Positions 1,834-36,297 of a stretch of DNA of 64,000 nt are shown here, piece after piece. The notes beneath the pieces were generated by a model. That model had not been told where the DNA came from. It saw nothing but the letters and a program-made list of their open reading frames with translations, and ran no database searches. This stretch comes from Solwaraspora sp. WMMA2056 (GTDB taxonomy: Bacteria; Actinomycetota; Actinomycetes; Mycobacteriales; Micromonosporaceae). Each line of letters starts with the position of its first letter. Position 1 is the first letter of the stretch. The position numbers were made by a program, and so were the translations under genes. Where the stretch lies: positions 4,154,001 to 4,218,000 of the forward strand of contig NZ_CP128360.1 of the NCBI RefSeq assembly GCF_030345095.1, written 5' to 3'.

Positions 1834-3468
1834 ATGCACGAGTTGCCACGACGTACCGACGTGGTCGTGGTCGGCACCGGGGCCGCCGGGCTGACCGCGG
1901 CCCTGACCGCCGCGGCCGCCGGCCTGCGGGTCACCATCGTGGAGAAGGCCTCGGTGATCGGCGGCACCACCGTCGTCTCCGGCGGCTCCATCTGGGCACC
2001 GGCGAACCGTTGGCTGGCCGAGGCGGGGGTGCCGGACAGCCGCGACGACGCCGTGAGCTACCTGCGCAGGCTTGCCCTGGGCCGGGTTCCCGACCAGCTC
2101 ATCGAGACCTTCGTCGATCAGGTCAACCCGATGCTGGACCTGGTGGTGGCGCACACCGGGCTGCGCTTCACCCCGAACCTGGAGCACCCCGACTACCAGC
2201 CGGACCTGCCCGGCGCACACCCCGGCGGACGCACCCTGCAGAGCGACCTGTTCGACGCGAATGTTCTCGGCGAGCTGCGCGGCAGGTTGCGCCCGACCCA
2301 CTCGACCGTGCCGGTCACCAAGCTCGAACTGGACCAGTGGGGGATGGACACGCTCGACCGGTGGGACTGGGCGCTGATCGCCGAACGTACCGCGAAGGGT
2401 GTCGTCGGGATGGGTGCCGCGCTGGTCGGTGAGCTCCTGCACGGCTGTCTGCGGCTCGGTGCCACGGTGCACCCGCAGACCCGGGCGGTCCGGCTGCGGC
2501 GTACCGGCGATCAGGTCGACGGGATCACCGTGGCCACCGGTGACGGCGAGGTGGAGATCGCCGTGGAACGGGGCGTGGTCCTTGCCTCTGGTGGGTTCGA
2601 ATGGGACCAGGAGATGGTCGGGCGCTTCCTCGGCGTACCGATGGACGCGCCGGCCAGCCCACCGGCGAACGCCGGGGACGGGCTGCGCATGGTGATGGAG
2701 GTCGGTGCCGCGCTCGGCAACATGAGCGAGGCATGGTGGGGTCCGATGGTGTACGCGGTCGGCGACACCTACGACGGGGCGCCGCTGTTCCGGCCCACCT
2801 CGGGTCTGCGGGCGCTACCGGGCGGGATCATCGTCAACCGGCAGGGCCGGCGCTTCTCGAACGAGGCGATGAACTACAACGACCTGGGTAAGGCGATGGC
2901 CACCTTCGACCCGATCCGCTACGAGTACGCCAACCTGCCCTGCTGGCTGGTGTTCGACGACCGGTTCCGGTCGTCGTACTCGGTGGCCACGGCGACCCCG
3001 GACGCGCCGACTCCTGGGTGGATGGCGACGGCACCGACGCTGGTCGAGCTGGCTGACGCGGTGGGCATCGACCCGGACGGACTGACCGCGCAGGTCGCCG
3101 AGTTCAACCGGCACGCCGAGCACGGACGGGATCCGCAGTTCGGTCGCGGTACGACCGTCTACGACCGGTACCGGGGCGACCCGACGGTGACGCCGCACCG
3201 CAACCTGCGTCCGCTCGGCACCGGCCCCTACTACGCGGTCCGGCTGCACCTGGGCTGCCTGGGTACCAAGGGTGGTCCGCTCTGCGACGGCAACGGGCAG
3301 GTGCGCGGCGTCGACGGAGACCTGATCGGCGGGCTGTACGCCTGCGGCAACGTCGCCGCGAGCCCGTTCGGGCCGGGTTATCCGGGTGCCGGGGCGACCC
3401 TGTCCGCCGGGATGACGTACGGCTATCTCAGTGGACGCTCGCTCGCGGCGAGACTCGCCGCAGGGTGA
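1834..3468 (+). CDS. FAD-dependent 3-ketosteroid delta1-dehydrogenase-like flavoprotein
   Basis: 544 residues, complete. The N-terminus has the dinucleotide motif GTGAAG (residues 14-19) and VEK at the end of the second beta strand. The segment VSGGSIWAPAN is typical of the KstD/fumarate-reductase flavoprotein group. Near the C-terminus are GPYYAVRLHLGCLGTKGG and YPGAG (Tyr516, Gly520); in KstD enzymes the Tyr and Gly of this last motif act in catalysis and substrate binding. It would remove hydrogens next to a ring ketone, but not necessarily on a steroid. A good ribosome site (GGAGA) precedes the ATG. The 3' end overlaps the convergent kstR2-like gene by 46 nt. KstD-like family call is firm; exact substrate unknown. 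Confidence 0.78.
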   Translation: MHELPRRTDVVVVGTGAAGLTAALTAAAAGLRVTIVEKASVIGGTTVVSGGSIWAPANRWLAEAGVPDSRDDAVSYLRRLALGRVPDQLIETFVDQVNPMLDLVVAHTGLRFTPNLEHPDYQPDLPGAHPGGRTLQSDLFDANVLGELRGRLRPTHSTVPVTKLELDQWGMDTLDRWDWALIAERTAKGVVGMGAALVGELLHGCLRLGATVHPQTRAVRLRRTGDQVDGITVATGDGEVEIAVERGVVLASGGFEWDQEMVGRFLGVPMDAPASPPANAGDGLRMVMEVGAALGNMSEAWWGPMVYAVGDTYDGAPLFRPTSGLRALPGGIIVNRQGRRFSNEAMNYNDLGKAMATFDPIRYEYANLPCWLVFDDRFRSSYSVATATPDAPTPGWMATAPTLVELADAVGIDPDGLTAQVAEFNRHAEHGRDPQFGRGTTVYDRYRGDPTVTPHRNLRPLGTGPYYAVRLHLGCLGTKGGPLCDGNGQVRGVDGDLIGGLYACGNVAASPFGPGYPGAGATLSAGMTYGYLSGRSLAARLAAG

Positions 3469-4079
3469 GCGGCTCCGGACCGGTCGTCGTCGGTCGGCCG
3501 GGCGGCGAGGCCGTCGAGGAAGATCGCGGTGCACTGGTCGGCGAGTCGGCTGGTGGGATACTCCGGGGTGGGGTGGAACCACCGGACCGAGAGCCAGACG
3601 GCGTCGCGGATGAAGCGGTAGAAGACCCGGGTGTCGATGTCGGCGCGGAACGCTCCGCTGCCGACGCCGGCGTCGATCACCCCGAGCCAGGCGCTCTGCA
3701 CCTCGCGGGCGACGTCCTTGAGGTAGTGGAACCGGGCCAGACCGCGCAGGTAGTTGACGTCGTTCTGGTAGATCTCGGTGGCGTGCGGGTGCGCGGCGGC
3801 GGTGTCCAGCGAAGCGCGCACCAGCTCCCGCAGCCGGGTCGCGGGATCGTTCTCCCCGGCCAGCACCTCGGCGTACCGCCGGCGCAGGTCCTCCAGGTAG
3901 GGGCCGAGGATCGCCTCGACGATCGCTTCCTTCGAGTCGAAGTGGTGGTACAGGCTGCCGGACAGGATGCCGACCTCGTCGGCGATCTGCCGGACCGTGG
4001 TGGCGGCCACGCCACGACTGGCGAAGAAGGCCGCCGCGCAGGCGGTGATCTGCTGTCGTCGATCCAGCGACTCTGCCAC
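3423..4079 (-). CDS. kstR2: TetR-family repressor, KstR2 type
   Basis: 218 residues from a GTG start at 4079. The helix-turn-helix region ATTVRQIADEVGILSGSLY followed by HHFDSKE closely matches mycobacterial KstR2. The C-terminal ligand domain keeps YRFIRDAVWLSVRWFHP; Arg158 and Trp162 fall where I recall the HIP-CoA-contacting Arg and Trp of KstR2 (Arg162/Trp166 there). KstR2 represses the genes for the last two steroid rings and lets go on binding HIP-CoA. Perfect copies of its known palindrome lie 55 bp upstream and in front of the ipd operon, which supports the call and suggests autoregulation. The last ~20 residues extend beyond the usual ~200-residue length and overlap the neighbouring gene. 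Confidence 0.9.
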   Translation of the reverse strand: MAESLDRRQQITACAAAFFASRGVAATTVRQIADEVGILSGSLYHHFDSKEAIVEAILGPYLEDLRRRYAEVLAGENDPATRLRELVRASLDTAAAHPHATEIYQNDVNYLRGLARFHYLKDVAREVQSAWLGVIDAGVGSGAFRADIDTRVFYRFIRDAVWLSVRWFHPTPEYPTSRLADQCTAIFLDGLAARPTDDDRSGAAHPAASLAASERPLR

Positions 4080-4133
4080 GGTGCCTCTTTCGGGTCTGCG
4101 ATGCGACGGGCGGGCGTCAGCATAGCAGTGTCA

Positions 4134-4147
4134 ATCAAGCGCTTGGT
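4134..4147. promoter_or_regulatory. KstR2-type operator O1
   Basis: ATCAAGCGCTTGGT matches AnCAAGnnCTTGnT at all ten fixed positions. It lies 55 bp upstream of the repressor gene and on its promoter side. Read leftward, a TANNNT hexamer (TATGCT) follows it, so it probably serves autoregulation. Confidence 0.88.
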
Positions 4148-4205: not shown

Positions 4206-4219
4206 AGCGAGCGCTTGAT
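4206..4219. promoter_or_regulatory. KstR2-type operator O2 (one mismatch) on the solute-binding-protein promoter
   Basis: AGCGAGCGCTTGAT fits AnCAAGnnCTTGnT with one mismatch. An alternative reading is a wider dyad, CAAGCG-AG-CGCTTG at 4204-4217. The right half contains TTGATT (4215-4220), which with TAGTTT (4238-4243) makes a -35/-10 pair with a 17 bp spacer. The site therefore covers the -35 box of the transporter operon starting at 4292. Confidence 0.72.
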
Positions 4220-4291: not shown

Positions 4292-5929
4292 ATGGCAACT
4301 GGTCGGAAACACAAGTGGAACGGGGCGTCCGCCCGCGTCGCGGTGGCCGGGCTGCTGCTCGCCGGCGTCGCCGCGTGCGGCGACGACAGCGATAGCAGCG
4401 AGACCGGCGGCATCCTCACCATGGCCACCTGGTCCGCCACCCAGTCACTCGACCCGGTCCAGGTCGCTGGCACCGGCAACTCCGGCGGCGCGGAACTCGC
4501 GGCGCTCTACGACACGATCATGCGGTACGACCCGGCCGGCGGCACCTTCGAGCCGCAGACCGCCGAGTCGCTGACCCCAAACGACGACTTCACCCAGTGG
4601 ACGCTCACCCTGCGCTCCGGGATCACCTTCAGCGACGGCGCGCCGTACGACGCGGCGGCGGTCGTGGCGAACCTGCAGCGGCACACCGAGGCGCGCTCCA
4701 ACGCCAGCTCGCTGGTCGCCCCGATCACCGACTACGCCACCCCGGACGACCGCACGGTGGTGTTCACCCTGGCCTTCCCGTGGAACAACTTTCCGTTCGC
4801 GCTCGCCGGAACGCCCGGCATGGTGGTCAACCCGGCGGCCGTGGCAGCCCAGGGCGACGCCTTCGGCACCGACCCGCAGGGCGGCGGCGCGGGCCCCTTC
4901 ACCATCGACGAGTTTCGCCCCGGAGAGTCGCTCACCCTGACCCGCAACCCTGAGTACTGGGGCGGCGACGTCCCGCTCGACGGGCTACGGTTCATTCACG
5001 CGGGCGACGGACCGCAGACCTACGAGGCGTTCCGGGCGGGCACGGTCGACCTGGCCTTCCTACGCGACGCCGGGGCGATCGCGGACGCCGAGGCCGACGG
5101 CGCCGACGGCATCCGCGTCCCGTACTCCGCCAACGACACGTTGATCATGAACAACGGGTTCCCGATCATCTGTCAGCAGGGCGAGCCGGCACCGCGCTGC
5201 GAAGGCCAGCCCGACGGTACGCAGTTGGAGTCCACCGCGCCGACCGCCGACAAGCGGGTCCGGCAGGCGGTCGCCGCGGCCATCGACCCCGAGACACTCA
5301 AACAACGGGTGTACGGCGGATCCGGCACCATGTCCACCGCGCTGATCTCCGCGGAGTCCCGCTGGTACAACGGCGTCGACGGACCCGCGTACGACATCGA
5401 CCGGGCCCGCCAGTTGGTCGAGCAGGCCAAGGCCGACGGCTGGGACGGACGCATCCGGGTCAGCTGCCATACGGGTCTACCGACCTGGGGGACCGCCGTG
5501 CAGGGCATGTTGGAGGCGGCCGGCATGCAGGTCGAGCTCACCGACCAGCAGGAGATCGCCGCGAACACGTCGGCGGTCATCGTGCGCAAGGACTTCGACC
5601 TGGCCTGCTTCGGGTCGTCGATCTCCGACGCCGAGCCGTTCTTCGCCCTCAACCGGGACTTCAACTCGACCTACGTCACCGCCGGCGGCGGGAACTTCTC
5701 CGGCTACGTCAACCCCACCGTCGACGAGGCGATCGCCGCCGGCCGGGCGTCCGACAGCGAGGCCGAGATCAAGGCCGCGATCACCACGATCGCCCGGGCG
5801 TACGCCGAGGACGTGCCGTTCCTCGCGCTGACCGCTCAGCCGGAGGTGGTGCTGATCTCCGACGAGATCGGCGGCGTGCTGCAGAGCGTCAACACGGTGG
5901 TGCTGCTCGGTGAGGCGACGCGGGAATGA
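4292..5929 (+). CDS. ABC transporter solute-binding lipoprotein, family 5 (oligopeptide/DppA type)
   Basis: 545 residues. A signal sequence ends in the lipobox LLLAGVAAC with Cys29 as the lipid-bearing residue. The mature protein follows the family 5 layout: TMATWSATQSLDPVQ, WTLTLRSGITFSDGAPYDA, then GPFTIDEFRPGESLTLTRNPEYW. Such proteins bind peptides, opines, nickel chelates or sugars outside the membrane. Here the matching permeases follow at 6788 and 7737 and the ATPases lie at 11749-13871 under their own operator. Because the promoter has a KstR2-type site, the ligand is more likely the catabolic substrate than a peptide (inference). It overlaps the next gene by ATGA. Confidence 0.9.
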   Translation: MATGRKHKWNGASARVAVAGLLLAGVAACGDDSDSSETGGILTMATWSATQSLDPVQVAGTGNSGGAELAALYDTIMRYDPAGGTFEPQTAESLTPNDDFTQWTLTLRSGITFSDGAPYDAAAVVANLQRHTEARSNASSLVAPITDYATPDDRTVVFTLAFPWNNFPFALAGTPGMVVNPAAVAAQGDAFGTDPQGGGAGPFTIDEFRPGESLTLTRNPEYWGGDVPLDGLRFIHAGDGPQTYEAFRAGTVDLAFLRDAGAIADAEADGADGIRVPYSANDTLIMNNGFPIICQQGEPAPRCEGQPDGTQLESTAPTADKRVRQAVAAAIDPETLKQRVYGGSGTMSTALISAESRWYNGVDGPAYDIDRARQLVEQAKADGWDGRIRVSCHTGLPTWGTAVQGMLEAAGMQVELTDQQEIAANTSAVIVRKDFDLACFGSSISDAEPFFALNRDFNSTYVTAGGGNFSGYVNPTVDEAIAAGRASDSEAEIKAAITTIARAYAEDVPFLALTAQPEVVLISDEIGGVLQSVNTVVLLGEATRE

Positions 5930-6762
5930 CCGGCCGATCCGCGACCGACGCCGCTGACCCGTCGGCGCGGGTCGGCGGGCGGGGTGGTGCCGGCGGCGCC
6001 GGCACCACCCCGGCACCCCCGGTGGCCCTGATCACCGCGGCCGCCCACGGCATCGGGGCAGCCACCGCCCGGGTCTTCGCCGAGGCGGGACACCGGGTGG
6101 TCCTGGCCGACGTCGACGCCGACGGGCTGGCCGCGACCGCCGCCGACCTCGCCGGCAGCGGCCTGGACCCGTCGGCGACGGTCGCGGTGGTCGCCGACGC
6201 GACCACCGAGGCCGGGGCCACGGCGGCGGTCGACGCGGCCGTCACCCGGTACGGGCGGCTCGACACCCTGGTCAACGTGGTGGGCGGCAGCCGGCCCGGC
6301 CGGACCGTGCTCGACATCGACCTCGCCGAGTGGGACCGGTGGGTCGCGCTCAACCTCACCTCGGTCTTCCTGATGTGCCGGGCCGCGCTGCCGCAGTTGA
6401 CGGCGGTCGGCGGGTCGATCGTCAACGTCTCGTCCGGTGCCGGCCTGCGGGGCATGCAGGCCAACCCGGCGTACTGCGCGGCCAAGGCCGGAGTCGTCGG
6501 ACTGACCCGGGCACTGGCCATCGACCACGGTCCCGCCGGCGTCCGGGTCAACTGTGTCGCGCCCGGGCCGGTCCGGACCCCGTTGATGGAACGTAACCGT
6601 AGCGCGGCCGAGATCGACGCGATGGGGCGGATCGCGGTCCTCGGCCGGATCGGCGCGCCAGCCGAGATCGCCGCGGCGATCCGCTGGCTGGCCAGCGACG
6701 CCGCGTCCTACCTGACCGGTCAGACCATCGAGGTCGACGGCGGCCCGGCTCCGTTGGTGTGA
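5926..6762 (+). CDS. Short-chain dehydrogenase/reductase (SDR 1)
   Basis: 278 residues with an extra ~30-residue Gly/Ala-rich N-terminus. The cofactor motif appears as TAAAHGIG, the usual NNAG is NVVG, and the catalytic Ser and YCAAK (Tyr-x-x-x-Lys) are present, followed by CVAPGPVRTP. It would oxidise or reduce a hydroxyl/keto group with NAD(P). It starts inside the stop of the binding-protein gene and ends 25 nt before the permease, so it is cotranscribed with the importer. Substrate unknown. Confidence 0.88.
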   Translation: MTGRSATDAADPSARVGGRGGAGGAGTTPAPPVALITAAAHGIGAATARVFAEAGHRVVLADVDADGLAATAADLAGSGLDPSATVAVVADATTEAGATAAVDAAVTRYGRLDTLVNVVGGSRPGRTVLDIDLAEWDRWVALNLTSVFLMCRAALPQLTAVGGSIVNVSSGAGLRGMQANPAYCAAKAGVVGLTRALAIDHGPAGVRVNCVAPGPVRTPLMERNRSAAEIDAMGRIAVLGRIGAPAEIAAAIRWLASDAASYLTGQTIEVDGGPAPLV

Positions 6763-6787
6763 CCCGCGACAAGGGGAGGCAACGCTG

Positions 6788-7744
6788 ATGTTGCGGACCG
6801 TGGCGATCAAGCTGGCCCTGCTCGTCCCGGTGTTGTTCCTGGTCAGCGTGGGCACGTTCGGGCTGCTCCAGTTGGGGCCGGGCGACCCCGCCGCCCAGGT
6901 GCTCGGCAACACCGGGACGGCCGCCGACTACCAGCGGATCCGTACCGAGATGGGGTTGGACCAGCCGCCGGTGCAGCGCTACCTCGACTGGCTCGGCGGC
7001 GTGCTGCGCGGCGATCTCGGGCAGAACCTCGTCCCGCCGATCGAGAACGTCTCCGACCGGCTGCTGCGCGCGTTCCCGGTGAACCTGCAACTCGCCGCCA
7101 TGGCCATCGTGCTGGCCCTGCTGATCGCCGTCCCGCTGGCGATGTGGTCGGCCTACCGGGCCGGCGGGCTGGTCGACCGGTGGATCTCCGCCGGCACCAT
7201 CGGCGTCATCTCGGTCCCACCGTTCCTGGTCGGTCTGCTCCTGCTGCTGGTGTTCGCCATCCAGCTCGGCTGGTTCCCGCTCGGGCAGTGGGCCCGGCCG
7301 TCCGACGCCGGCTGGGGGCAGAACCTGTGGCACGCGTTCCTGCCCGCGTTGACCCTGGCACTGGCCGAGGCGCCGGTCTTCGCCCGCCTGCTGCGCGGCG
7401 ACCTGGTCGCCACCCTGCAGGAGGACTTCATCCTGGCGGCGAAGGCCAAGGGCATGCCCGGCTGGCACATCATGCTCCGGGAGGCGCTGCGCCCCTCGTC
7501 GTTCTCGTTGATCACCCTGGCCGGGGTCAGCGCCGGCCGACTGCTGGGCGGCACCATCATCGTCGAAGCGGTCTTCGTCCTGCCCGGGGTGGGCAACGTC
7601 ATCATCAACGCCGCGCAGAACAACGACTACAAGCTGGTCCAGGGCGGTGTGCTGCTGATCGCGGTCATCTACCTGCTGCTGAATCTCGCCGTGGACGTCC
7701 TGTACGGCTACCTCGACCCACGGATCCGGAGACGGCATGCCTGA
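6788..7744 (+). CDS. ABC transporter permease, DppB type
   Basis: 318 residues with an N-terminal membrane helix (IKLALLVPVLFLVSVGTFGL), the FGLLQLGPGDPAA segment common to DppB/OppB permeases, and several further hydrophobic helices. The ATPase-coupling loop is ILAAKAKGMPGWHIMLREAL. A GGGGAGG ribosome site precedes the ATG. It pairs with the DppC-type permease whose ATG lies 8 nt before its own stop. It would form half of the membrane channel of the importer fed by the lipoprotein at 4292. Confidence 0.92.
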   Translation: MLRTVAIKLALLVPVLFLVSVGTFGLLQLGPGDPAAQVLGNTGTAADYQRIRTEMGLDQPPVQRYLDWLGGVLRGDLGQNLVPPIENVSDRLLRAFPVNLQLAAMAIVLALLIAVPLAMWSAYRAGGLVDRWISAGTIGVISVPPFLVGLLLLLVFAIQLGWFPLGQWARPSDAGWGQNLWHAFLPALTLALAEAPVFARLLRGDLVATLQEDFILAAKAKGMPGWHIMLREALRPSSFSLITLAGVSAGRLLGGTIIVEAVFVLPGVGNVIINAAQNNDYKLVQGGVLLIAVIYLLLNLAVDVLYGYLDPRIRRRHA

Positions 7745-8612
7745 ACTCAGCCGTACCCGACGGCGTCGGGCCGACCTCGCCTTCTGGCTCAGCGTCTGCT
7801 GGCTGGTCGCCCTCACCGGCTGCGCCCTGCTCGCCGATCTGCTGCCGCTGGGCAACGCCGACGACACCACCCTGACGATCGGCGTCGCCGGTTACGCGCG
7901 GCCGGACCTGTTCTCGGCCAACCCGCTCGGCACCAACGGGTTCGGGCTCGACCTGCTGGCCCGGTCCATCCACGGAGCGCGGGTGAGCCTGCTGACGGTC
8001 GGCTGCACCGTCGTGGTCAGCCTGCTGATCGGCGGTACGGTCGGGATGCTCGCCGGCTACTTCCGGGGCTGGGTCGACGTGGTCATCGGGATCTTCGCCG
8101 ACGCCGCCCTGGTGATCCCCGCGCTCGTCCTGCTGATCGCCTTCGCCGCGGTGCTCGGCCCGCCCCGCACCGTGCCGGAGGCGGTCCTCAAGAGCGGCCT
8201 GGCCCTGGCCGTGGTCGGCATCCCGACGATGATCCGGCTGGCCCGCGCCAACACGTTGCTCTTCGCCCAGCGGGAGTTCGTCACCGCCAGCCGGGCGATG
8301 GGTGCCCGGCACCGCCGGATCCTGTTCCGGGAGCTGCTGCCGAACGTGGCCCTGCCGTTGGTCTCCTACGCCTTCATCGTCGCGGCGGTCCTGATCGTCG
8401 CGGAGGGCTCACTGGCCTTCCTCGGCCTCGGCCTGCAACAACCCGCACCGTCCTGGGGCAACATGATCGCCGAAGGTGGCCTGCGGGAGTTGCGCCGCCA
8501 TCCGCACGTACCGCTGATTCCCGGCGTGTTCATGTTCCTCACCGTCTTCAGCCTGAACATCGTCGGAGAGCGTGCCCGGGCCCGGTGGGATCCCCGGGAC
8601 TCCCAGGTCTGA
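7737..8612 (+). CDS. ABC transporter permease, DppC type
   Basis: 291 residues. It begins with a membrane helix, then the DppC-specific motif HPLG-like NPLGTNGFGLDLLARSIHGARVSL, and carries the coupling loop TASRAMGARHRRILFRELLPN. The ending NIVGERARARWDPR is typical of the family. It overlaps the DppB-type gene by 8 nt. Together they form a heterodimeric channel; the ATPases are encoded separately at 11749-13871. Confidence 0.92.
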   Translation: MPELSRTRRRRADLAFWLSVCWLVALTGCALLADLLPLGNADDTTLTIGVAGYARPDLFSANPLGTNGFGLDLLARSIHGARVSLLTVGCTVVVSLLIGGTVGMLAGYFRGWVDVVIGIFADAALVIPALVLLIAFAAVLGPPRTVPEAVLKSGLALAVVGIPTMIRLARANTLLFAQREFVTASRAMGARHRRILFRELLPNVALPLVSYAFIVAAVLIVAEGSLAFLGLGLQQPAPSWGNMIAEGGLRELRRHPHVPLIPGVFMFLTVFSLNIVGERARARWDPRDSQV

Positions 8613-8673
8613 CCGCAGTGTCCGGGGTCGGCCCGTTCTCGACACCCTCGACCCGAGCAGCAGGAGGTACGTC

Positions 8674-10700: not shown

Positions 10701-10727
10701 GCCCGGCGAAGCCGGACCCACCCGGAC
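10691..10727. terminator. Nested hairpin terminator between convergent genes
   Basis: A 9 bp perfect outer stem, GTCCGGGTG (10691-10699) with CACCCGGAC (10719-10727), encloses an inner CCGGC-GAA-GCCGG stem. It spans the stop of the aminotransferase and lies 18 nt from the stop of the convergent SnoaL-like gene, so it can end both transcripts. No T-tract is seen, as is common in actinomycetes. Confidence 0.72.
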
Positions 10728-10744
10728 CAGCCCGCGACGACAGG

Positions 10745-11206
10745 TCAGTCGGCCGGCTGAGCGGCCGTGGTGAATCGGGGTACCGGCCAGACGGTCGGCG
10801 AGCTGGTGCTCCAGAGCACCTGGTGTACCCGTTCGCGGATCCGCCAGCCGTTGTCGGTGCGGACCAGCCGGTCGGCGTAGTGCAGTCCCCGGTGCACCAC
10901 CTCGTGGCCGTCGGTGACCGGGCGCACCAGATGGGCCACCGTGTACGAGCTGGCGACCGCCGAGTCGCCGTCGACCTCGACGGTGGCCGAGCCGACCACG
11001 TGCTGGCTGGCGGCCAGTCGAGCCAGCGGCGCCATGTGCGCGACGATGTGGCGCACTCCTGGCTCCAGCCGTCGACCGGAGTACTCCGCCCGGGCGTCGT
11101 CGGTGAAGCAGTCGCCGACCGCCTCGAACTCACGCCGGTCGCAGCACTGGGCGTACCGGTTCAGCAATTCGACGATGGCCGCACGGTCATCGGCGTATCC
11201 GGGCAT
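10745..11206 (-). CDS. SnoaL/NTF2-fold protein (1)
   Basis: 153 residues from ATG 11206. The beginning DDRAAIVELLNRYAQCCDRREFEAVGDCFTDDA is the standard start of SnoaL-like, scytalone-dehydratase and ketosteroid-isomerase-related proteins. The end DRLVRTDNGWRIRERVHQVLW is the matching last strand pair. These small cone-shaped barrels isomerise, hydrate or dehydrate ring compounds, or only bind ligands. It is divergent from a second SnoaL-like gene 66 nt away; no KstR2-type site lies between them. Confidence 0.85.
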   Translation of the reverse strand: MPGYADDRAAIVELLNRYAQCCDRREFEAVGDCFTDDARAEYSGRRLEPGVRHIVAHMAPLARLAASQHVVGSATVEVDGDSAVASSYTVAHLVRPVTDGHEVVHRGLHYADRLVRTDNGWRIRERVHQVLWSTSSPTVWPVPRFTTAAQPAD

Positions 11207-12774: not shown

Positions 12775-13871
<1,097 letters not shown>

Positions 13872-28976: not shown

Positions 28977-28986
28977 GGAACCGACC

Positions 28987-29811: not shown

Positions 29812-29814
29812 CCG

Positions 29815-30954
29815 ATGGATCTACGTCCGGACCCCGCCGACGAACAGTTCCGCGCCGAGGCCCGCGACTGGCTGCGCGCCCACCGGCCGTCCCGCCCGCT
29901 GCCCTCCGGCGACACCCGCGCCGGGTTCGCCGCCCACCTGGAGTGGGAGCGCACACTGCACGACGGCGGCTGGTCGGTGGTCTCCTGGCCCCGCCGCTAC
30001 GGCGGCCGGGACGCCTCCCTCTGGCAGTGGCTGATCTTCGAGGAGGAGTACGCCGCCGCCGGCGCACCGCAGCGGGTCACCCAGAACGGCATCTTCCTGC
30101 TCGCCCCGACGCTGTTCGAGTTCGGCACCGACGAGCAGCGGGACCGGATCCTCCCGGCGATGGCCGCCGCCGAGCAGCTGTGGTGCCAGGGCTGGTCCGA
30201 GCCGGGTGCCGGCAGCGACCTGGCCGCGTTGACCAGCCGGGCGGTCCGCGACGACGCGGCCGGCGGGTGGCGGCTGACCGGGCACAAGACATGGACCACC
30301 CGGGGCGCGTACTGCACCCACCTGTTCGGCCTGTTCCGGACCGACCCGCAGCAGCAGCGGCACCGGGGCCTGACCTACTTCCTGGTGCCGCTGGACGCCC
30401 CCGGGGTGACCGTGCGGGGATTCGGCCGGTTCGACGGCGACGAGGGGTTCGCCGACGTCCACTTCGACGACGTGTTCGTACCGGACGCCGACGTGGTCGG
30501 CGAGGTCGGGGCCGGCTGGCGGGTGGCGATGGCCACCACCGGCTCCGAACGTGGCCTCACCCTGCGCCCGCCGGGCCGGTTCACCGCGGCCGCCGCCCGG
30601 CTGGTCGAGCTGGCCGGCGACCGGCCGGTCCGGCTCACCGGCCGGCTGCGTGAGCAGGTGGTCCGCGCCTGGCTCGGTGCCCGTGCCTACCACCTGTTCA
30701 CCCTGGCCCAGGTGACCCGGATGCTCGACGGCGATCCGCCGGGTGCGGCAGCCAGTCTCAACAAGATCCACTGGTCCGAGCTGGACATCGCGCTGCACCG
30801 TACCGCCCTCGAACTGCTCGGCCCGGACGCCGAGGTCGACACCGAGTGGACCCGTGGCTTCCAGTTCTCCCTGGCCGGCCCGATCTACGCCGGCACCAAC
30901 GAGATCCAACGCGGCATCGTCGCCGAGCGGCTGCTCGGCCTGCCCCGACGCTGA
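29815..30954 (+). CDS. Acyl-CoA dehydrogenase, large (alpha) subunit, FadE30/FadE31-like
   Basis: 379 residues. WCQGWSEPGAGSDLAAL and WTTRGAYCTHLFGLFRT form the FAD/acyl-CoA site, and the end IYAGTNEIQRGIVAERLLGLPRR is that of actinobacterial FadE proteins in steroid degradation. The Glu of the usual IYEGT motif is Ala here, as in other steroid FadE alpha subunits, where the base sits elsewhere. A smaller FadE follows after 12 nt, so an alpha2beta2 enzyme is likely. It should desaturate a CoA ester of HIP or of the ring-opened acid. Confidence 0.88.
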   Translation: MDLRPDPADEQFRAEARDWLRAHRPSRPLPSGDTRAGFAAHLEWERTLHDGGWSVVSWPRRYGGRDASLWQWLIFEEEYAAAGAPQRVTQNGIFLLAPTLFEFGTDEQRDRILPAMAAAEQLWCQGWSEPGAGSDLAALTSRAVRDDAAGGWRLTGHKTWTTRGAYCTHLFGLFRTDPQQQRHRGLTYFLVPLDAPGVTVRGFGRFDGDEGFADVHFDDVFVPDADVVGEVGAGWRVAMATTGSERGLTLRPPGRFTAAAARLVELAGDRPVRLTGRLREQVVRAWLGARAYHLFTLAQVTRMLDGDPPGAAASLNKIHWSELDIALHRTALELLGPDAEVDTEWTRGFQFSLAGPIYAGTNEIQRGIVAERLLGLPRR

Positions 30955-30966
30955 GGAGGAGACGGA

Positions 30967-32013
30967 ATGCGGTTCGCCCTCACCGACGAGCAGGCGACGC
31001 TCCGCGACGCGGTCGACGACCTGCTCGCCGCCGAATGCCCACCGTCGGCGGTCCGCGCCGCCTGGCCCGGTGGAGACCCGGCCCCGCTGGACCGGCTCTG
31101 GACCGCGCTCGCCGAGATGGGCGTGCTCGCCGCGGCGGTGCCCGAGTCCGCCGGTGGCCTCGGGCTGACCGAGGTGGACCTGGTGCCGTTGCTCACCGCC
31201 GCTGGGTACGCGGCGGTGCCGTTGCCGGTGGCCGAGACCGCCGTCGTCGCCGGACCGCTGCTGGCCGCCGCCGGCGACCCCGGCGGGCAGCTCGCCGCGC
31301 TCGTCGAGGGTCGCTGCCGGATCGCCGTCGTCGGGCCGGGCGGTCTCGTCCCGTACGGGCGGCGGGCCGACCTGCTGCTGCTCCTGACGCCGCCGGACGG
31401 ACCCCGACTGGTCCGGCCGGACGAGGTCGCGACCACGCCGGTGCCGACCATGGACGGCAGCCGGGCCGCGCTGCGGCTCACCGGCGAGCCCGCCGTCGGG
31501 CCGTCCGTCGGTATCCGGCTCGACGTGCCGGCCGACCTGCTGGCGCTGACCGCCGACCGGGCCACCCTGGCCGCCTCGGCCCAGCTGGTCGGGCTCGGCC
31601 GCCGGATGCTCGACCTCACCGTCGCGCATGTCGGCACCCGCCGCCAGTTCGGCGCCCCGGTCGGCAGCTTCCAGGCGGTCCAGCACCAGCTCGCCGACGC
31701 CCTGCTCGGGCTGGAACTCGCCGCCCCGGCGGTGCTCGCCGCCGGCTGGGCGGCCGCCACCGGTGCCGACAGCCGCCCGGCCGATGTCTCGGCCGGCTAC
31801 CTGCTCGCCGCCGACGCCGCCGAACGGACCGCCCGCGCCGCACTGCAGTGCCACGGCGCGATCGGCTACACGATCGAGTACGACCTGCACCTGTACGCCA
31901 AGCGGGCGTGGGCGCTCGTGGCCGCGACCGCCGGCACCGACCACCACCTCGACCGGCTCGGCACCGCGATCGGACTGCCCGCCGCCACCGCCGAGCAAGG
32001 AGGACGACCGTGA
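30967..32013 (+). CDS. Acyl-CoA dehydrogenase, small (beta) subunit, FadE32/FadE33-like
   Basis: 348 residues, shorter than catalytic FadE. The middle domain is reduced, and the C-terminal domain keeps RRQFGAPVGSFQAVQHQLAD and LQCHGAIGYTIEYDLHLYAKRA, the latter typical of beta subunits. These supply part of the FAD site in heterotetrameric steroid acyl-CoA dehydrogenases. GAGGAGA precedes the ATG. Stop overlaps the next start as GTGA. Confidence 0.86.
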   Translation: MRFALTDEQATLRDAVDDLLAAECPPSAVRAAWPGGDPAPLDRLWTALAEMGVLAAAVPESAGGLGLTEVDLVPLLTAAGYAAVPLPVAETAVVAGPLLAAAGDPGGQLAALVEGRCRIAVVGPGGLVPYGRRADLLLLLTPPDGPRLVRPDEVATTPVPTMDGSRAALRLTGEPAVGPSVGIRLDVPADLLALTADRATLAASAQLVGLGRRMLDLTVAHVGTRRQFGAPVGSFQAVQHQLADALLGLELAAPAVLAAGWAAATGADSRPADVSAGYLLAADAAERTARAALQCHGAIGYTIEYDLHLYAKRAWALVAATAGTDHHLDRLGTAIGLPAATAEQGGRP

Positions 32014-32939
32014 CCGACGCCGCCGCGAGCCCGTCACCACCCGCCGAGGACCGGCCGGGCGTGGCCGCCGACGACCCTGTCGGCCCCGTCGCCGACGAGG
32101 CGGTGGTCCGGTACGCCACCGACGGGCCGGTGGCGGTGGTCACCATGAACCGCCCCCGGTACGCCAACGCGCAGAACTCCGCGATGACCTACGCCCTCGA
32201 CGACGCCTTCTCCCGCGCCGCCGCCGACGACGACGTACGGGTGGTGGTGCTCGCCGGCGCCGGTAGGCACTTCTCCGCTGGCCACGACATCGGCACCCCC
32301 GGGCGCGACGCCGACCGCAGCTTTCCGCGCCGGGCCGGGCTGTGGTGGGACCACGTCGGCAAGGCCGGCGCGGAGAGCCGGTTCGCCCGCGAGTCCGAGG
32401 TCTACCTCGGCATGTGCCGACGTTGGCGGGAGCTGCCCAAGCCGACCGTCGCCATGGTGCAGGGCGCCTGCATCGCTGGCGGGCTGATGCTCGCCTGGTG
32501 CTGCGACCTGATCGTCGCCGCCGACGACGCCCGGTTCGCCGACCCGGTGGTCCGGATGGGTATCCCCGGTGTCGAGTACTTCGCCCACCCGTGGGTGATG
32601 GGGCCCCGCTTCGCCAAGGAGTTCCTCTTCCTCGGCGAACGGGTCGACGCCGACCGGGCGCTGGCCCTCGGCATGGTCAACCGGGTGGTGCCCCGGGCCG
32701 AGCTGCAGCCGTACACGATGGAGCTGGCCGGCCGGATCGCCACCATGCCCCGGCTGGGCCTGGCCCTGACGAAGAAGGCGGTCAACCAGGCCGAGGACCT
32801 GATGGGTCTGCGGGCCGGGATGGATTCGGTGTTCGGCCTGCACCACGTGGCGCACGCGCACAACGCCGAGGTCGGCGACGATCCGCTGGCCGGACACGAC
32901 GCCCGCAGCATGCGTGAGCCGGCAGAGGGTTCCGGCTGA
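32010..32939 (+). CDS. Enoyl-CoA hydratase/isomerase (crotonase family)
   Basis: 309 residues from GTG 32010 (AAGGAGG 6 nt upstream). An acidic/Pro-rich N-terminal ~30 residues precedes VRYATDGPVAVVTMNRPRYANAQN. Oxyanion-hole segments are FSAGHDIGTPG and QGACIAGGLMLAWCCDLIVA. RFAKEFLFLGERVDADRALALGMVNRVV is standard for the fold. The His-rich HHVAHAHNAE near the end is characteristic of one actinobacterial subgroup. Probably hydrates the double bond made by the upstream dehydrogenase; it is not an EchA20 type. Confidence 0.87.
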   Translation: MTDAAASPSPPAEDRPGVAADDPVGPVADEAVVRYATDGPVAVVTMNRPRYANAQNSAMTYALDDAFSRAAADDDVRVVVLAGAGRHFSAGHDIGTPGRDADRSFPRRAGLWWDHVGKAGAESRFARESEVYLGMCRRWRELPKPTVAMVQGACIAGGLMLAWCCDLIVAADDARFADPVVRMGIPGVEYFAHPWVMGPRFAKEFLFLGERVDADRALALGMVNRVVPRAELQPYTMELAGRIATMPRLGLALTKKAVNQAEDLMGLRAGMDSVFGLHHVAHAHNAEVGDDPLAGHDARSMREPAEGSG

Positions 32940-33844
32940 TGCGCGTCGACGTGCAGCTGTTCGGCCTGCCGGCCACCGAGTACGCGCCGCTGGTGGTGCA
33001 CGCCGAGCGGCTCGGCTTCGACACGGTCTGGCTGGCCGACCACGTGATCACTCCGGCCCGGTACGCGCCGACCTACCCGTACCGGTCCTCCGGCGACCCC
33101 GGTATCCGGCCGGACACCCCACTGTCCGACGTGACGGTCACGCTCGGGCACCTGGCCGCCCGGACCAGCCGGATCCGGCTCGGCACCGGCGTGCTCATCG
33201 CCCCGCTGCGGGACCCGTTCCACCTCGCCCGCGCCTGGGCGAGTCTGCAGCAGCTCTCCGCCGGCCGGGCGGTGCTCGGCGTCGGGGTCGGCTGGATGGC
33301 AGAGGAGTTCGCCGCGCTCGGCGTCGACTTCGGCACCCGGGGTGCGCGCACCGACGAAATGCTGCGGGTCCTCGACCTGCTCTGGTCCGGCGAGCCGGTG
33401 GCACACCAGGGTCGGTTCTTCGACTTTCCGACCGTACACTTCGGTCCCTCGCCGCAGCCGCCGGTGCCGGTGGTGGTCGGCGGCCACAGCCCGGCCGCGC
33501 TGCGTCGGGCCGCCCGGCACGGTGCCGGCTGGTTCGGACCCGACGTGGACCTGGCGACCTCGGCCCGGCTGTGCGGGCAGTTGGCTCAGCTGCGGGAGCA
33601 GGTCGGGCGTGCCGACGACGACTTCACCTGCCACGTCCGACTGCACGGTGCGATCAGCGTCGCCACGGTGCGGGCGTACCGCGACGCCGGGCTCGACCAC
33701 CTGGTCGTCGCGCCGTTCACCCGACTGCCACCGGCGGCCACCCGGGCGGACCGGCTGGCCGCCCTGGACTCCGTCGCCGAGCGACTCGCGTCGCTGTGGC
33801 CCGACCCGGCATCGACCGGCCACCCCGCAGGAGAGACCCGATGA
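32939..33844 (+). CDS. LLM-class, probably F420-dependent, oxidoreductase
   Basis: 301 residues. The TIM-barrel features of luciferase-like enzymes are clear: AERLGFDTVWLADHVI, RIRLGTGVLIAPLRDPFHLARAWASLQQLSAGR, LGVGVGWMAEEFAALG, and PVVVGGHSPAALRRAARHGAGWF. The style is that of F420-dependent actinobacterial enzymes rather than FMN monooxygenases. No such gene is in the mycobacterial KstR2 core set as I know it. TGATG overlap with the crotonase gene and ATGA overlap with the acyl-CoA synthetase place it inside the operon. A reduction of a conjugated ketone or enoate is possible. Confidence 0.88.
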   Translation: MRVDVQLFGLPATEYAPLVVHAERLGFDTVWLADHVITPARYAPTYPYRSSGDPGIRPDTPLSDVTVTLGHLAARTSRIRLGTGVLIAPLRDPFHLARAWASLQQLSAGRAVLGVGVGWMAEEFAALGVDFGTRGARTDEMLRVLDLLWSGEPVAHQGRFFDFPTVHFGPSPQPPVPVVVGGHSPAALRRAARHGAGWFGPDVDLATSARLCGQLAQLREQVGRADDDFTCHVRLHGAISVATVRAYRDAGLDHLVVAPFTRLPPAATRADRLAALDSVAERLASLWPDPASTGHPAGETR

Positions 33845-35538
33845 CCGCTGCCAACCCACCGGCCGCCTTCGACCAGGAGACCATCGACGAGTACACCCGT
33901 GCCGGGTACTGGACCGGTGACACCATCGCGTCGATGGTGGCCGGGCACGCCGCCGCCCGGCCCGCCGATCCGGCGTTGCTCGCCACCGACGCCACGCTGA
34001 CCTGGTCGCAGTACGACACGCTGAGCACCCGGCTGGCCGGTGGCTACGTCCTGGCCGGCCGGCAACCAGGGGAGCGGGTCGCCACCCTGCTCACCAACGG
34101 AGCGTTGGTGCACGTCGCGTACCTGGCCGCGCAGAAGGCCGGCCTGGTGACGGTCGGCATCGGTCCGCGTGCCGGAACGGCCGAGGTGCGGCACCTGATC
34201 CGGCGTACCGGGGCGAGTGCGCTGTTCACCCGGCCGGTGCATCGGGGCCGGGCCGCCGCCGAGCTGGCCGCCGACCTGTGGGCCGACGGCGTCGTCGATC
34301 CGTACCGCCAGGCCCGACCAGCCCCGGGCGGCCGGCCTGAGCACCTGACCGCGCAGCTCACCGCCTCCGGCGAGCTGCACCTGCTCCGTGACGGCAAGCC
34401 ACTGGACCTGCCCGACCTGGCGACTGCGGCGGCCGCGATCGCCGGTCGCGGGCTCGGCGCCGACGACCTGTTCTTCCTCAACTCCACCTCGGGTACGACC
34501 GGGCTGCCCAAGTGCGTGATGCAGACGATGAACACCCGCAAGTACTTCGGGCCGCTCGCGGCCGAGGCGGCCCGGTTCGGGCCGGACGAGGTTTTCGCCA
34601 GCGTGCTGCCAGCTCCGTACGGCTTCGGCCAGTGGAGCGGTCACGTGGTGCCGGCCATGTACGGCTATCCGACGGTGCTGGCCGAGGAGTTCGACGCGGA
34701 ACAGACCTGGCAACTGATCGAACGGCACCGGGTCACCGTGCTCGCCGCTGTGACCAGCCAGTTCGTGATGATGCTCAACGCCGAGGGGCGCGCCGCCCGG
34801 GACGTGTCGTCGCTGCGGGTGCTGTTCACCGGCGGGGAGCGGGTGCCGGGGGACCGGGCCGCCCGGTTCGAGGAGGAGACCGGCTGCGCCGTGCTGCAGT
34901 TCTACGGTTCCAACGAGGCGGGTCCGATCAGCGTGACCCGGGTCGACGACTCCCGGGAGCAGCGGCTGGGCACCGCCGGACGGGTGATCCCGCAGATGCG
35001 GGTACGGCTGTTCGACGCCGAGGGTGCCGACGTGACCGCCACCGGTGGCCCTGGTCAGTGCGCCGCGCGGGGGCCGGGACTGACCCCCGGCTACTACGAC
35101 GACCCGCAGGCCAACCTGCAGCTGTTCCACCCGCAGGGCTGGATGCTCACCGGTGATCTGGTCCGGATCGACCCGGCCGGCTACCTCACGGTGACCGGCC
35201 GGGTGGCGGATTTCCTGATCCGGGGTGGGCACAACGTCAGCGTGTTGGCGGTCGAGGAAGCGGTCGGCGGCTGTGCGCGGGTCGCCCAGGTCGCGGTGGT
35301 ACCGGCCGCCGACGAGGTGCTCGGGGAGCGGGCCTGCGCCTACGTGGTGACCACCGACGGGACCGACCTGACCCTCGACGAACTTCGGGCCGACCTGGCC
35401 GCGCGGGGGATCTCCAAGTACGAGTGGCCGGAGCGGCTGGTCACCCTGGCGGAGCTGCCGTTGAGTGCGGGCGGCAAGGCGGACAAGGCGTGGCTGCGGG
35501 CCGATGCCGCGACCCGGTTCGGTCAGCCGGCGCGGTGA
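33841..35538 (+). CDS. Acyl-CoA synthetase (AMP-forming)
   Basis: 565 residues from ATG 33841, which overlaps the LLM gene. ANL-family motifs: STSGTTGLPKCVMQT (P-loop), QFYGSNEAG (A5), GWMLTGDLVRID, and the catalytic Lys of SAGGKADKAWL. In the mycobacterial regulon FadD3 makes HIP-CoA, the KstR2 ligand. This protein sits in the same regulon but is longer and closer in style to aryl-acid ligases of the DhbE/MenE group than to FadD3. It may be the functional replacement, activating the imported acid. The last 16 nt overlap the convergent hydrolase gene. Confidence 0.88.
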   Translation: MTAANPPAAFDQETIDEYTRAGYWTGDTIASMVAGHAAARPADPALLATDATLTWSQYDTLSTRLAGGYVLAGRQPGERVATLLTNGALVHVAYLAAQKAGLVTVGIGPRAGTAEVRHLIRRTGASALFTRPVHRGRAAAELAADLWADGVVDPYRQARPAPGGRPEHLTAQLTASGELHLLRDGKPLDLPDLATAAAAIAGRGLGADDLFFLNSTSGTTGLPKCVMQTMNTRKYFGPLAAEAARFGPDEVFASVLPAPYGFGQWSGHVVPAMYGYPTVLAEEFDAEQTWQLIERHRVTVLAAVTSQFVMMLNAEGRAARDVSSLRVLFTGGERVPGDRAARFEEETGCAVLQFYGSNEAGPISVTRVDDSREQRLGTAGRVIPQMRVRLFDAEGADVTATGGPGQCAARGPGLTPGYYDDPQANLQLFHPQGWMLTGDLVRIDPAGYLTVTGRVADFLIRGGHNVSVLAVEEAVGGCARVAQVAVVPAADEVLGERACAYVVTTDGTDLTLDELRADLAARGISKYEWPERLVTLAELPLSAGGKADKAWLRADAATRFGQPAR

Positions 35539-36224
35539 CCGGGGGCCGGGTCGTCGGTCGATCCGGCCCACACCGCGACGATCTGCTCGCTCGTGGTCCA
35601 GTCCTGCGGGGCGAGCAACGCCCGGAAAGCCGGTTCGCAGGCCGCGGTGAGCTCTGCGGTGTTGTTGGCGACGCAGTCGGCCGGTACGACGGTGAAGTAG
35701 TCCCGTTCGATCGCGTCGCGGACGGTGGACTCGACACATCCGGTGCCGGCGACTCCGGTCACGACCAGGCTGCGGATGTCCCTGCTGCGGAGCAGGTTCT
35801 CCAGCTGGGTGCCGACGAAGGCGCTGCGCCGCAGCTTCTCGAACACCACGTCCCCTGGCTGCGGGGTGAGCTCGTCCACGATCTCCCAGCCCCAGGTCCC
35901 CCGCATGCAGTGCATCGGCTCGAATCCGTGTCGGAGGTTGTCGGCCAGCCAGACCGGCGAGGCCAGCGAGCCGTCCGGATGCTGCACCACCCGGCAGTAC
36001 AGCACCGCCGCGCCGGCGGCCCGCGCGGCGGCGGCGAGCCGACCGATCGGCGGGACCACGCCCTGGAAGCCGGCCACCATCGGCCTGCCGAACGACCTGG
36101 CGCAGTAGCCGTCGTCGTGTACGAAGTCGTTCTGCATGTCGACGATGAGCAGCGCCGTGCGGGCAGGATCGATCTTGAGGTCGAGGCGGTCGGGCAGGAC
36201 GTGCCCGAGGTAGGTGCGGGGCAT
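35523..36224 (-). CDS. Isochorismatase-family cysteine hydrolase
   Basis: 233 residues from ATG 36224, with GGGAG 7 nt upstream; a TTG 60 nt further up is less likely because it would lie on the operator edge. The catalytic triad is visible: Asp in LLIVDMQNDF, Lys in VFEKLRRSAF, and Cys in TGVAGTGCVESTVRDA. Family members cleave amides or vinyl ethers (N-carbamoylsarcosine, nicotinamide, isochorismate). An imperfect KstR2-type site 60 bp upstream suggests coregulation. Substrate unknown. Confidence 0.88.
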   Translation of the reverse strand: MPRTYLGHVLPDRLDLKIDPARTALLIVDMQNDFVHDDGYCARSFGRPMVAGFQGVVPPIGRLAAAARAAGAAVLYCRVVQHPDGSLASPVWLADNLRHGFEPMHCMRGTWGWEIVDELTPQPGDVVFEKLRRSAFVGTQLENLLRSRDIRSLVVTGVAGTGCVESTVRDAIERDYFTVVPADCVANNTAELTAACEPAFRALLAPQDWTTSEQIVAVWAGSTDDPAPGHRAG

Positions 36225-36283
36225 CGGGAACTCCCAGGGATCGACGGGGCGCGGCAGTGGGCGGTACGCGGATCCGACTGCCA

Positions 36284-36297
36284 ATCAAATGCTTGGT
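36284..36297. promoter_or_regulatory. KstR2-type operator O6 (one mismatch)
   Basis: ATCAAATGCTTGGT fits AnCAAGnnCTTGnT at nine of ten fixed positions (CAAA instead of CAAG). It lies upstream of the leftward hydrolase gene and marks the right edge of the regulon. Confidence 0.68.

What the first reader, a model, noticed from the sequence alone, without database searches (positions are those of the whole stretch)
3423..36297. A KstR2-type regulon of at least six operators over 32 kb
A regulator with KstR2 hallmarks (GILSGSLY helix, FIRD-x-x-W ligand motif) is encoded beside two copies of its known palindrome. Four perfect copies (4134, 13883, 24062, 25353) and two near-perfect ones (4206, 36284) stand in front of the repressor gene, transporter, SnoaL-SDR unit, thiolase/monooxygenase pair, ipd operon and hydrolase gene. 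This ties more than 25 genes, many not known from the cholesterol regulon, into one proposed response to a HIP-CoA-like signal.
Basis: partly seen in the sequence, partly recalled or inferred. Interest (0 to 1): 0.85.

Follow-up and report, generated by a model that had tools for sequence, protein, structure and literature searches.

The report
KstR2 regulon without cholesterol ring genes
A repressor known from cholesterol breakdown appears to control a conserved island of uptake and ring-degrading genes in an actinobacterium whose genome lacks the usual steroid ring-opening genes, so its substrate is probably not cholesterol and is still unknown.

Summary
Four perfect and two near-perfect KstR2 palindromes lie where stated, and the four perfect ones are the only perfect matches in the 7.01 Mb genome. 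A weight matrix trained on other genera finds these six, three more just upstream of the window, and nothing else in the 144 contiguous kb examined. Dinucleotide shuffles of the window give 0.005 hits on average. Sites are conserved in congeners. The two near-perfect sites fit a second operator form with half-sites 4 bp further apart.
The regulator is a KstR2 orthologue by sequence, predicted fold and effector residues. It sits over a HIP-type C/D-ring operon (ipdABCF, echA20, fadE pair) and fadA6, plus two Opp-type transporters, SnoaL proteins, an aminotransferase and others absent from the published M. tuberculosis KstR2 list.
Two corrections. The monooxygenase operon is probably not KstR2-controlled, which leaves 24 window genes. 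The seven same-genus genomes searched lack KshA and HsaC-type dioxygenase, and the own genome lacks KstR, so this is not a classical cholesterol regulon. A gentisate-type pathway is interleaved. I read it as a KstR2 regulon for a non-sterol or already-processed hydrindane substrate. Substrate is inferred; binding is untested.

The parts
3423..4079 (-). kstR2 orthologue, TetR-family repressor
   Evidence: Best PDB matches 2ibd 4e-50 and 4w97/4w1u 8e-44 to 9e-44, next 3dcf 4e-16; predicted fold closest to the same entries
4134..4147 (.). Operator 1, perfect; 54 bp upstream of kstR2 (autoregulation)
   Evidence: (22.3 bits), perfect in 4 of 4 syntenic congeners and in G006
4206..4219 (.). Operator 2, wide form CCAAGC-GAGC-GCTTGA; 72 bp upstream of the SBP gene
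   Evidence: (20.8 bits); conserved in 4 of 4 syntenic congeners
4292..11740 (+). Seven-gene unit: SBP_bac_5 protein, SDR, two Opp permeases, SDR, class I/II aminotransferase, SnoaL_4 protein
   Evidence: Pfam; overlapping or nearly abutting frames
11749..13871 (-). OppD and OppF type ATPases completing the transporter
   Evidence: Pfam ABC_tran + oligo_HPY
13883..13896 (.). Operator 3, perfect; 11 bp from oppD start, 44 bp from snoaL start
   Evidence: 32.1 bits; 32.1 bits in 4 of 4 syntenic congeners
13941..15270 (+). SnoaL_4 protein and SDR
   Evidence: Pfam
17652..23894 (-). Five-gene unit of doubtful membership: 3-hydroxybenzoate 6-hydroxylase-like FAD monooxygenase, ALDH, CrtO-like flavoprotein, SDR, 4,5-dihydroxyphthalate decarboxylase-like protein
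   Evidence: start is 167 bp from operator 4
24062..24075 (.). Operator 4, perfect; 17 bp upstream of fadA6
   Evidence: 29.5 bits; perfect in 4 of 4 syntenic congeners
24093..25334 (+). FadA6-type thiolase (link of model PRK07851 to FadA6 recalled)
   Evidence: NCBIfam PRK07851 703 bits over cut-off 580
25353..25366 (.). Operator 5, perfect; 59 bp upstream of ipdA
   Evidence: 35.4 bits; perfect in 4 of 4 syntenic congeners
25426..35538 (+). Ten-gene ipd operon: ipdA, ipdB, ipdC, ipdF, echA20, two fadE, enoyl-CoA hydratase, F420-type LLM protein, AMP-forming ligase
   Evidence: IpdA and IpdB best PDB match 6co6 7e-97 and 2e-85
35523..36224 (-). Isochorismatase-like hydrolase
   Evidence: Pfam PF00857
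36284..36297 (.). Operator 6, wide form with one mismatch (reverse strand ACCAAGC-ATTT-GATTGG); 59 bp upstream of the hydrolase
   Evidence: 17.5 bits; G001 has a perfect core, G005 a wide-form site at the same place
1..3468 (+). Right half of the interleaved gentisate-type operon: FrdA-like flavoprotein (start outside window), SRPBCC protein, KstD-like flavoprotein; no KstR2 site

Best explanation
The window holds most of a KstR2 regulon. The TetR-type repressor at 3423-4079 is a KstR2 orthologue. It binds CAAGnnCTTG palindromes, and a wider form with half-sites 4 bp further apart, in front of its own gene, two Opp-type ABC transporters, a SnoaL-SDR unit, fadA6, the ipd operon, a hydrolase gene and an aldehyde dehydrogenase unit. 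A HIP-CoA-like hydrindane thioester made from the imported substrate releases it, and the ipd enzymes then open the remaining two rings. In this genus the module is cut loose from the KshA/HsaC/KstR cholesterol route, so the hydrindane comes from another source. Shown: sites, statistics, conservation, gene families, marker absences in the genomes searched. Inferred: binding, effector, uptake role and substrate.
For: Sites; 9 operators at 17 bits or more in C1:4139098-4190284, nothing else in the 144 kb around. Conservation. Training set: the core motif occurs 80 times in 55 of 80 named KstR2 loci against 0, 1 and 1 for three scrambled controls. Regulator; R158 and W162 (R162 and W166 of Mtb KstR2 by the motif numbering of PMC13176608) invariant in both alignments (15 and 23 sequences). 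Lower pathway. Missing upper pathway: KshA_C in 0 of 7 same-genus genomes, HsaC-type at 1e-40 in 0 of 7, KstR best 49.7 of 280 bits in own genome. An Opp transporter with a KstR2-type operator about 100 bp upstream of its SBP gene occurs in the Enemella dayhoffiae locus L093.
Against: No binding, expression or metabolite data. The ligase is not FadD3 by its model (212 of 657 bits) and only two acyl-CoA dehydrogenases are present in the operon where M. tuberculosis lists four (PMC5380842). Wide-form sites alone are not specific in this genome: 18 of 20 CAAGN6CTTG places lie outside the island. Only 36 of 79 scorable named KstR2 loci have a perfect core within 500 bp upstream of the regulator. 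A second KstR2-like protein (62% identity, same recognition helix) in the genome could share or own some sites. The matrix was not run on about 96% of the genome.
Confidence: 0.78

Rival explanations
1. HIP scavenger: the bacterium does not open steroid rings A and B itself but imports HIP or related fragments excreted by other steroid degraders, using the Opp-type transporters under KstR2 control.
For: C/D-ring genes present with no KshA or HsaC-type gene in the seven same-genus genomes; two transporters with KstR2-type operators. HIP is reported as an extracellular metabolite in estrogen degradation (PMC12507874 passages).
Against: Does not account for the SnoaL, ALDH, OYE-like and aminotransferase genes under the same operators, nor for the interleaved gentisate-type genes. 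Ligase is not FadD3-type.
Confidence: 0.3
2. Two independent catabolic units lie side by side: a KstR2-controlled HIP unit and an IclR-controlled 3-hydroxybenzoate/gentisate unit with no shared substrate.
For: No KstR2 site at the gentisate operon or within typical distance of the monooxygenase; an IclR gene sits beside the gentisate dioxygenase-like gene; the monooxygenase has its own palindromes, though none of that type precedes the dioxygenase gene.
Against: The units are interleaved: KstR2 operators flank the gentisate operon on both sides and the monooxygenase unit lies between operators 3 and 4. Both are present in 5 of 7 same-genus genomes and both are missing from G002 and G006, though one deletion could explain each loss.
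Confidence: 0.4
3. Relic of a cholesterol regulon that lost its upper part and is decaying.
For: ipdA normally accompanies KshA (30 of 42 ipdA-bearing genomes); G006 shows a decayed version. SnoaLb aligns only in two pieces in G001, G004 and G005.
Against: The window frames are open, most of the proteins align over their full length in four syntenic congeners, operators are conserved, and operators stand before genes that were not found near KstR2 in 80 named loci.
Confidence: 0.08
4. The KstR2-like paralogue at C1:4560825 is the real binder of these operators, or both compete.
For: Same recognition helix; no operator of this type near the paralogue in any of the seven genomes examined.
Against: The orthologue is encoded inside the island beside two operators, one in autoregulatory position; in G006, which lost most of the island, the orthologue still keeps an operator.
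Confidence: 0.1

Closest known systems
KstR2 regulon of Mycobacterium and Rhodococcus jostii RHA1 (Kendall 2010, PMC3068626, passages seen; PMC5380842, passages seen)
   Same: Repressor family, operator AnCAAGnnCTTGnT, autoregulation, ipdABCF, echA20, fadA6, fadE genes, SDR genes
   Different: Three operators and 15 genes there, nine operators and about 31 genes here; Opp-type transporters, SnoaL, aminotransferase, OYE-like and LLM genes added; no KstR, KshA or HsaC-type gene found in the genome; ligase not FadD3
Predicted KstR2 sites in 29 operons of Nocardioides simplex (PMC7807495, passages seen)
   Same: Large predicted KstR2 regulon
   Different: That strain has three kshA orthologues and responds to phytosterol; I did not see how its sites are laid out
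Steroid 4,5-seco (estrogen) route of Actinomycetota (PMC12507874, passages seen)
   Same: Reaches HIP; ring A is opened by a hydroxylase and dioxygenase other than KshA and HsaC
   Different: Uses P450 hydroxylase AedA and meta-cleavage dioxygenase AedB, which I did not search for; only weak matches to the one extradiol model tried in this genome
3-hydroxybenzoate/gentisate pathway
   Same: 3HB6H-like monooxygenase with His213 and Tyr217 kept (roles in PMC5472690, passages seen), gentisate dioxygenase-like cupin, mycothiol maleylpyruvate isomerase family protein, FAA hydrolase, IclR gene beside
   Different: Interleaved with a KstR2 regulon; dioxygenase below its equivalog cut-off (266 of 442 bits)

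Membership tests
KstR2 repressor | Closest solved relatives by sequence and fold are KstR2 | tested here: met
   2ibd, 4w97, 4w1u in sequence and predicted fold, TM 0.77-0.81 of query; that 2ibd is RHA1 KstR2 is recalled, its title says probable transcriptional regulator RHA5900
KstR2 repressor | Recognition helix and operator AnCAAGnnCTTGnT | tested here: met
   GILSGSLYHHF shared with the 2ibd and Mtb proteins; operators
KstR2 repressor | Operator in its own promoter | tested here: met
   Site 54 bp upstream of the start
KstR2 repressor | Effector residues Arg and Trp (role as HIP-CoA contacts recalled, not read) | tested here: met
   R158 and W162 invariant in 15 and 23 sequences
KstR2 repressor | Published KstR2-3 signature [ED][DE][RM]N[RK][QE]QRK | tested here: not met
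   Window reads KDVAREVQS there, by eye on the alignment; the paper (passages) reports the signature only in Mycobacteriaceae, so it does not define the wider family
KstR2 repressor | DNA binding released by HIP-CoA | not testable with these tools
   Needs purified protein
HIP (C/D-ring) pathway | IpdAB, IpdC, IpdF, EchA20, FadA6 | tested here: met
   IpdA, IpdB by solved relatives; IpdF, EchA20, FadA6 over NCBIfam cut-offs whose link to these names is recalled; IpdC by Pfam NMO and FabK-like match only
HIP (C/D-ring) pathway | FadD3 HIP-CoA synthetase | tested here: not met
   Island ligase 212 of 657 bits on the FadD3 model; rest of the genome not searched for FadD3
HIP (C/D-ring) pathway | IpdE1-IpdE2 type dehydrogenase | tested here: inconclusive
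   IpdE2 is best family for 30967-32013 but 122 of 450 bits
9,10-seco cholesterol pathway | KshA | tested here: not met
   0 of 7 same-genus genomes, 34 of 151 genomes searched positive at 0.001
9,10-seco cholesterol pathway | HsaC-type dioxygenase | tested here: not met
   0 of 7 same-genus at 1e-40, 36 of 151 genomes positive; best own match 89 of 366 bits
9,10-seco cholesterol pathway | KstR | tested here: not met
   Best 49.7 of 280 bits in own genome
Estrogen 4,5-seco pathway | P450 4-hydroxylase and meta-cleavage dioxygenase | not tested
   AedA and AedB sequences were not searched
3-hydroxybenzoate/gentisate pathway | Hydroxylase, ring-cleavage cupin, isomerase, hydrolase | tested here: inconclusive
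   All four types present; dioxygenase and hydrolase below equivalog cut-offs

The most novel reading that the evidence does not exclude
The island encodes a ring-degradation route not yet described: a polycyclic ketone, perhaps an aromatic-ring-A or 19-nor steroid or a plant or marine terpenoid, is imported by Opp-type transporters and split without KshA or HsaC-type meta-cleavage into two halves. One half is an aromatic fragment, for example 4-hydroxyphthalate to 3-hydroxybenzoate to gentisate, handled by the decarboxylase-like, 3HB6H-like and gentisate-type genes. The other is a hydrindane acid handled by the KstR2-controlled ipd operon. An alternative of the same boldness is an amino-acid-conjugated hydrindane such as a coronafacoyl compound, whose 1-oxo-indene-4-carboxylate core (recalled) resembles the HIC and HIEC intermediates.
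Probability: 0.18. Interest if true: 0.78.

Novelty: new variant of a known kind. Interest (0 to 1): 0.55.

Why it matters
KstR2 and the ipd genes are treated as the lower end of cholesterol and other steroid breakdown. Here they form a separable module with its own uptake systems in a lineage where the steroid ring-opening genes were not found. So ipd/KstR2 does not by itself prove sterol degradation, and a source of HIP-like hydrindanes remains to be found. The second operator form gives a testable model of how KstR2 reads DNA and would make regulon predictions in other actinobacteria more complete.

Tried and rejected
Classical cholesterol regulon: rejected, because KshA, HsaC-type and KstR were not found. 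One-mismatch matches as evidence: rejected, because they are as frequent as the control genome-wide; eleven 3-kb loci around such matches hold no matrix hit of 9 bits. The distant site at C1:6846358: dropped, 9.1 bits only. The CrtO-like protein as a probe for named genomes found nothing, and among 151 genomes only five same-genus ones, own included, had it at 1e-60. Naming the genus: not achieved. The family is Micromonosporaceae, inferred because contig lengths of G049, G060, G068 and G084 equal those of Dactylosporangium and Virgisporangium records (family of these genera recalled). SnoaLb (at 0.001) and the ligase (at 1e-60) gave no solved relative. Paper searches for KstR2 with Micromonospora (2 papers), KstR2 with ABC transporter and oligopeptide (none), gentisate with steroid and HIP (3 papers), two of ipdA/kshA/gentisate (15 papers) and KstR2 alone (40 of 86 listed) showed no description of this island in titles and abstract starts; the library lacks most subscription journals.

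In the co-occurrence table I dropped three KshA matches weaker than 1e-20 (G048, G106, G148) and three KstR2 matches under 38% identity (G009, G118, G136).
Full report
Observation. In the whole 7,010,427-base chromosome there are four perfect matches, all these four. One-mismatch matches are not informative alone: 115 places at up to one mismatch against 125 for the reversed pattern. The bare core CAAGnnCTTG has 28 places (reversed control 117), six with the CG centre; five of those six lie between 4139100 and 4179364 (P about 4e-11 for a given 40 kb, chosen after seeing the data).

Independent matrix. They hold the core motif 80 times in 55 of 80 loci, against 0, 1 and 1 for three scrambled controls; 36 of 79 scorable loci have it within 500 bp upstream of the regulator. 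A 24-bp symmetric matrix from 71 unique sites was run on 144 kb of contiguous own sequence (C1:4094001-4238000), 84 kb from five other stretches and 47 kb from fifteen 3-kb loci. The next hit anywhere examined is 9.1 bits. In 200 dinucleotide shuffles of the window the mean count is 0.005; one shuffle held one site, of 20.8 bits. A simulated background suggests about 2 chance hits of 15 bits or more per genome. About 96% of the genome was not scanned with the matrix.

Conservation. Five of seven same-genus genomes (own, G001, G003, G004, G005) carry the island. In the four others the sites at 4134, 13883, 24062 and 25353 are perfect and 4206 is conserved. The 36284 site is conserved in G003, a perfect core in G001 and a wide-form site in G005; in G004 no hydrolase gene or site was found in the stretch fetched. 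Of the upstream sites, those of the second transporter are present in 4 of 4 (three genomes have an extra site there), and that of the aldehyde dehydrogenase unit in the 2 of 2 whose stretch was fetched. G003 is about 97% identical in these proteins and so counts for little; G004 is the most distant. G006 has lost most catabolic genes but keeps kstR2, one perfect operator and the hydrolase; in G002 neither the orthologue nor ipdA nor the dioxygenase gene was found.

A second operator form. In the 80 loci CAAG-N(g)-CTTG is frequent for g=2 (101) and g=6 (44) and at most 11 for other g from 0 to 15; the inverted order CTTG-N(g)-CAAG gives at most 17. The control half-sites GTTC/GAAC, which are common in coding DNA, reach 89, so only the gap profile of one half-site pair is a fair comparison. 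Of the 44, 21 share a half-site with a narrow core; 19 unique contexts are wide only, 10 of them ACCAAGC-N4-GCTTGGT exactly. Window site 4206 has CAAG-N6-CTTG, 36284 has it with one mismatch, and the RHA1 site ro04652/04653 listed by Kendall (PMC3068626, passages) has it too. In the own genome the wide pattern alone is not specific, 18 of 20 places being elsewhere. Two dimers bound 4 bp apart would explain it; this is inference.

The regulator. Best solved relatives are 2ibd of RHA1 and M. tuberculosis KstR2 (4e-50 and 8e-44, next 4e-16). The predicted model (mean pLDDT 84.7) matches the same entries first. Arg158 and Trp162 are invariant in alignments of 15 and 23 sequences and correspond to R162 and W166 by the motif numbering in PMC13176608 (passages); that they contact HIP-CoA is recalled. 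The KstR2-3 signature of that paper is not present, but it is reported only from Mycobacteriaceae. No NCBIfam model reached its cut-off. A paralogue at C1:4560825 (62% identity, same recognition helix) has no such operator near it.

The genes. Starts were chosen from codon-position GC content and frame overlap, not from an annotation. Units behind operators in the window: kstR2 (1 gene); SBP-SDR-permease-permease-SDR-aminotransferase-SnoaL (7); OppD-OppF (2) and SnoaL-SDR (2) from the shared site 13883; fadA6 (1); the ipd operon (10); the hydrolase (1): 24 genes. The five-gene monooxygenase unit would make 29, but its start lies 167 bp from site 24062, and TTCTG..CAGAA-type palindromes lie between, also in 3 of 4 congeners. 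In M. smegmatis regulated starts lie 22-82 bp from the site and one at 285 bp is not regulated (PMC3068626). Upstream of the window are an aldehyde dehydrogenase-SDR-OYE-like unit (3), a permease-permease-OppDF unit (3) and a second substrate-binding protein (1). In the 80 named loci (10 kb each side at most, E 1e-20, half the length) the core ipd genes recur (IpdA in 37) and SDR-family matches are common, while SBP5, the aminotransferase, both SnoaL proteins, the CrtO-like protein, the monooxygenase, the decarboxylase-like protein, the isochorismatase-like hydrolase and the gentisate dioxygenase, FAA hydrolase and isomerase are found in none. A partial parallel is L093 of Enemella dayhoffiae: an Opp-type transporter (31-54% identity) and a weaker FAA-hydrolase match, with a KstR2-type operator (28.6 bits) about 100 bp upstream of the likely SBP start. 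That site overlaps the end of the upstream fadE frame and was itself in the training set.

Not a cholesterol regulon. KshA_C was not found in any of the seven same-genus genomes and was found in 34 of 151 genomes at 0.001. HsaC-type dioxygenase at 1e-40 was in none of the seven and in 36 of 151. KstR was not found in the own genome. Over 151 genomes ipdA occurs in 42, of which 30 have KshA at 1e-20; 8 have neither KshA nor HsaC-type, five of them this genus, and the other three are draft assemblies. The 14 control genomes of the KshA search held no strong positive, so the relatives serve as the positive control.

The interleaved gentisate unit. From C1:4150299 to window 3468 runs a row of co-oriented genes: gentisate dioxygenase-like cupin (266 of 442 bits), FAA hydrolase, mycothiol maleylpyruvate isomerase family protein, FrdA-like flavoprotein, SRPBCC protein and KstD-like flavoprotein, beside an IclR gene. 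The window's monooxygenase is nearest to RHA1 3-hydroxybenzoate 6-hydroxylase (1e-105) and keeps His213 and Tyr217 (roles in PMC5472690, passages). Its unit ends with a 4,5-dihydroxyphthalate decarboxylase-like protein (9jp7, 5e-79). At 1e-40 the dioxygenase gene is present in the five island-bearing congeners and not in G002 and G006. Interleaving suggests one pathway; adjacency and shared deletion are weaker evidence, and no KstR2 site serves these genes.

Verdict. Very likely a real KstR2 regulon, larger than described, with a new gene complement and a second operator form, in a lineage where the source of the HIP-like signal is unknown. New variant of a known kind.

Noticed in passing
window 23971-24017: Two palindromes (TTCTG-N2-CAGAA and TTCTG-N5-CAGAA) between the monooxygenase unit and operator 4, also in G001, G003 and G005 but not in the G004 stretch examined; perhaps sites of another regulator such as the nearby IclR protein.
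   Followed up: partly
C1:4560825-4561403 (L050 13831-14403): KstR2-like paralogue, 62% identity with the same recognition helix; counterparts in all seven same-genus genomes, with no KstR2-type operator near them.
   Followed up: partly
L060 (G006) 1169-6200: Decayed version of the island: kstR2 with a perfect operator, hydrolase and GGDEF gene nearly full length, remnants of SDR3, the decarboxylase-like and KstD-like genes.
   Followed up: partly
L093 13531-18987: Enemella dayhoffiae KstR2 locus with its own Opp-type transporter and a FAA hydrolase-like gene near a KstR2-type operator.
   Followed up: partly
window 15391-17595: PAS-GGDEF-EAL protein inside the island, conserved in position in G001, G003, G004, G005 and also kept in G006.
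   Followed up: no
window 36483-57425: Carbohydrate-active and related genes among those scanned: GH10 with CBMs, M14 carboxypeptidase, GH92, ThuA/GSDH and 3-keto-disaccharide hydrolase proteins, next to the island and without KstR2 sites.
   Followed up: no
window 10697-11740: 347-residue protein with a SnoaL_4 domain in its C-terminal half and an N-terminal half without family match or solved relative.
   Followed up: no
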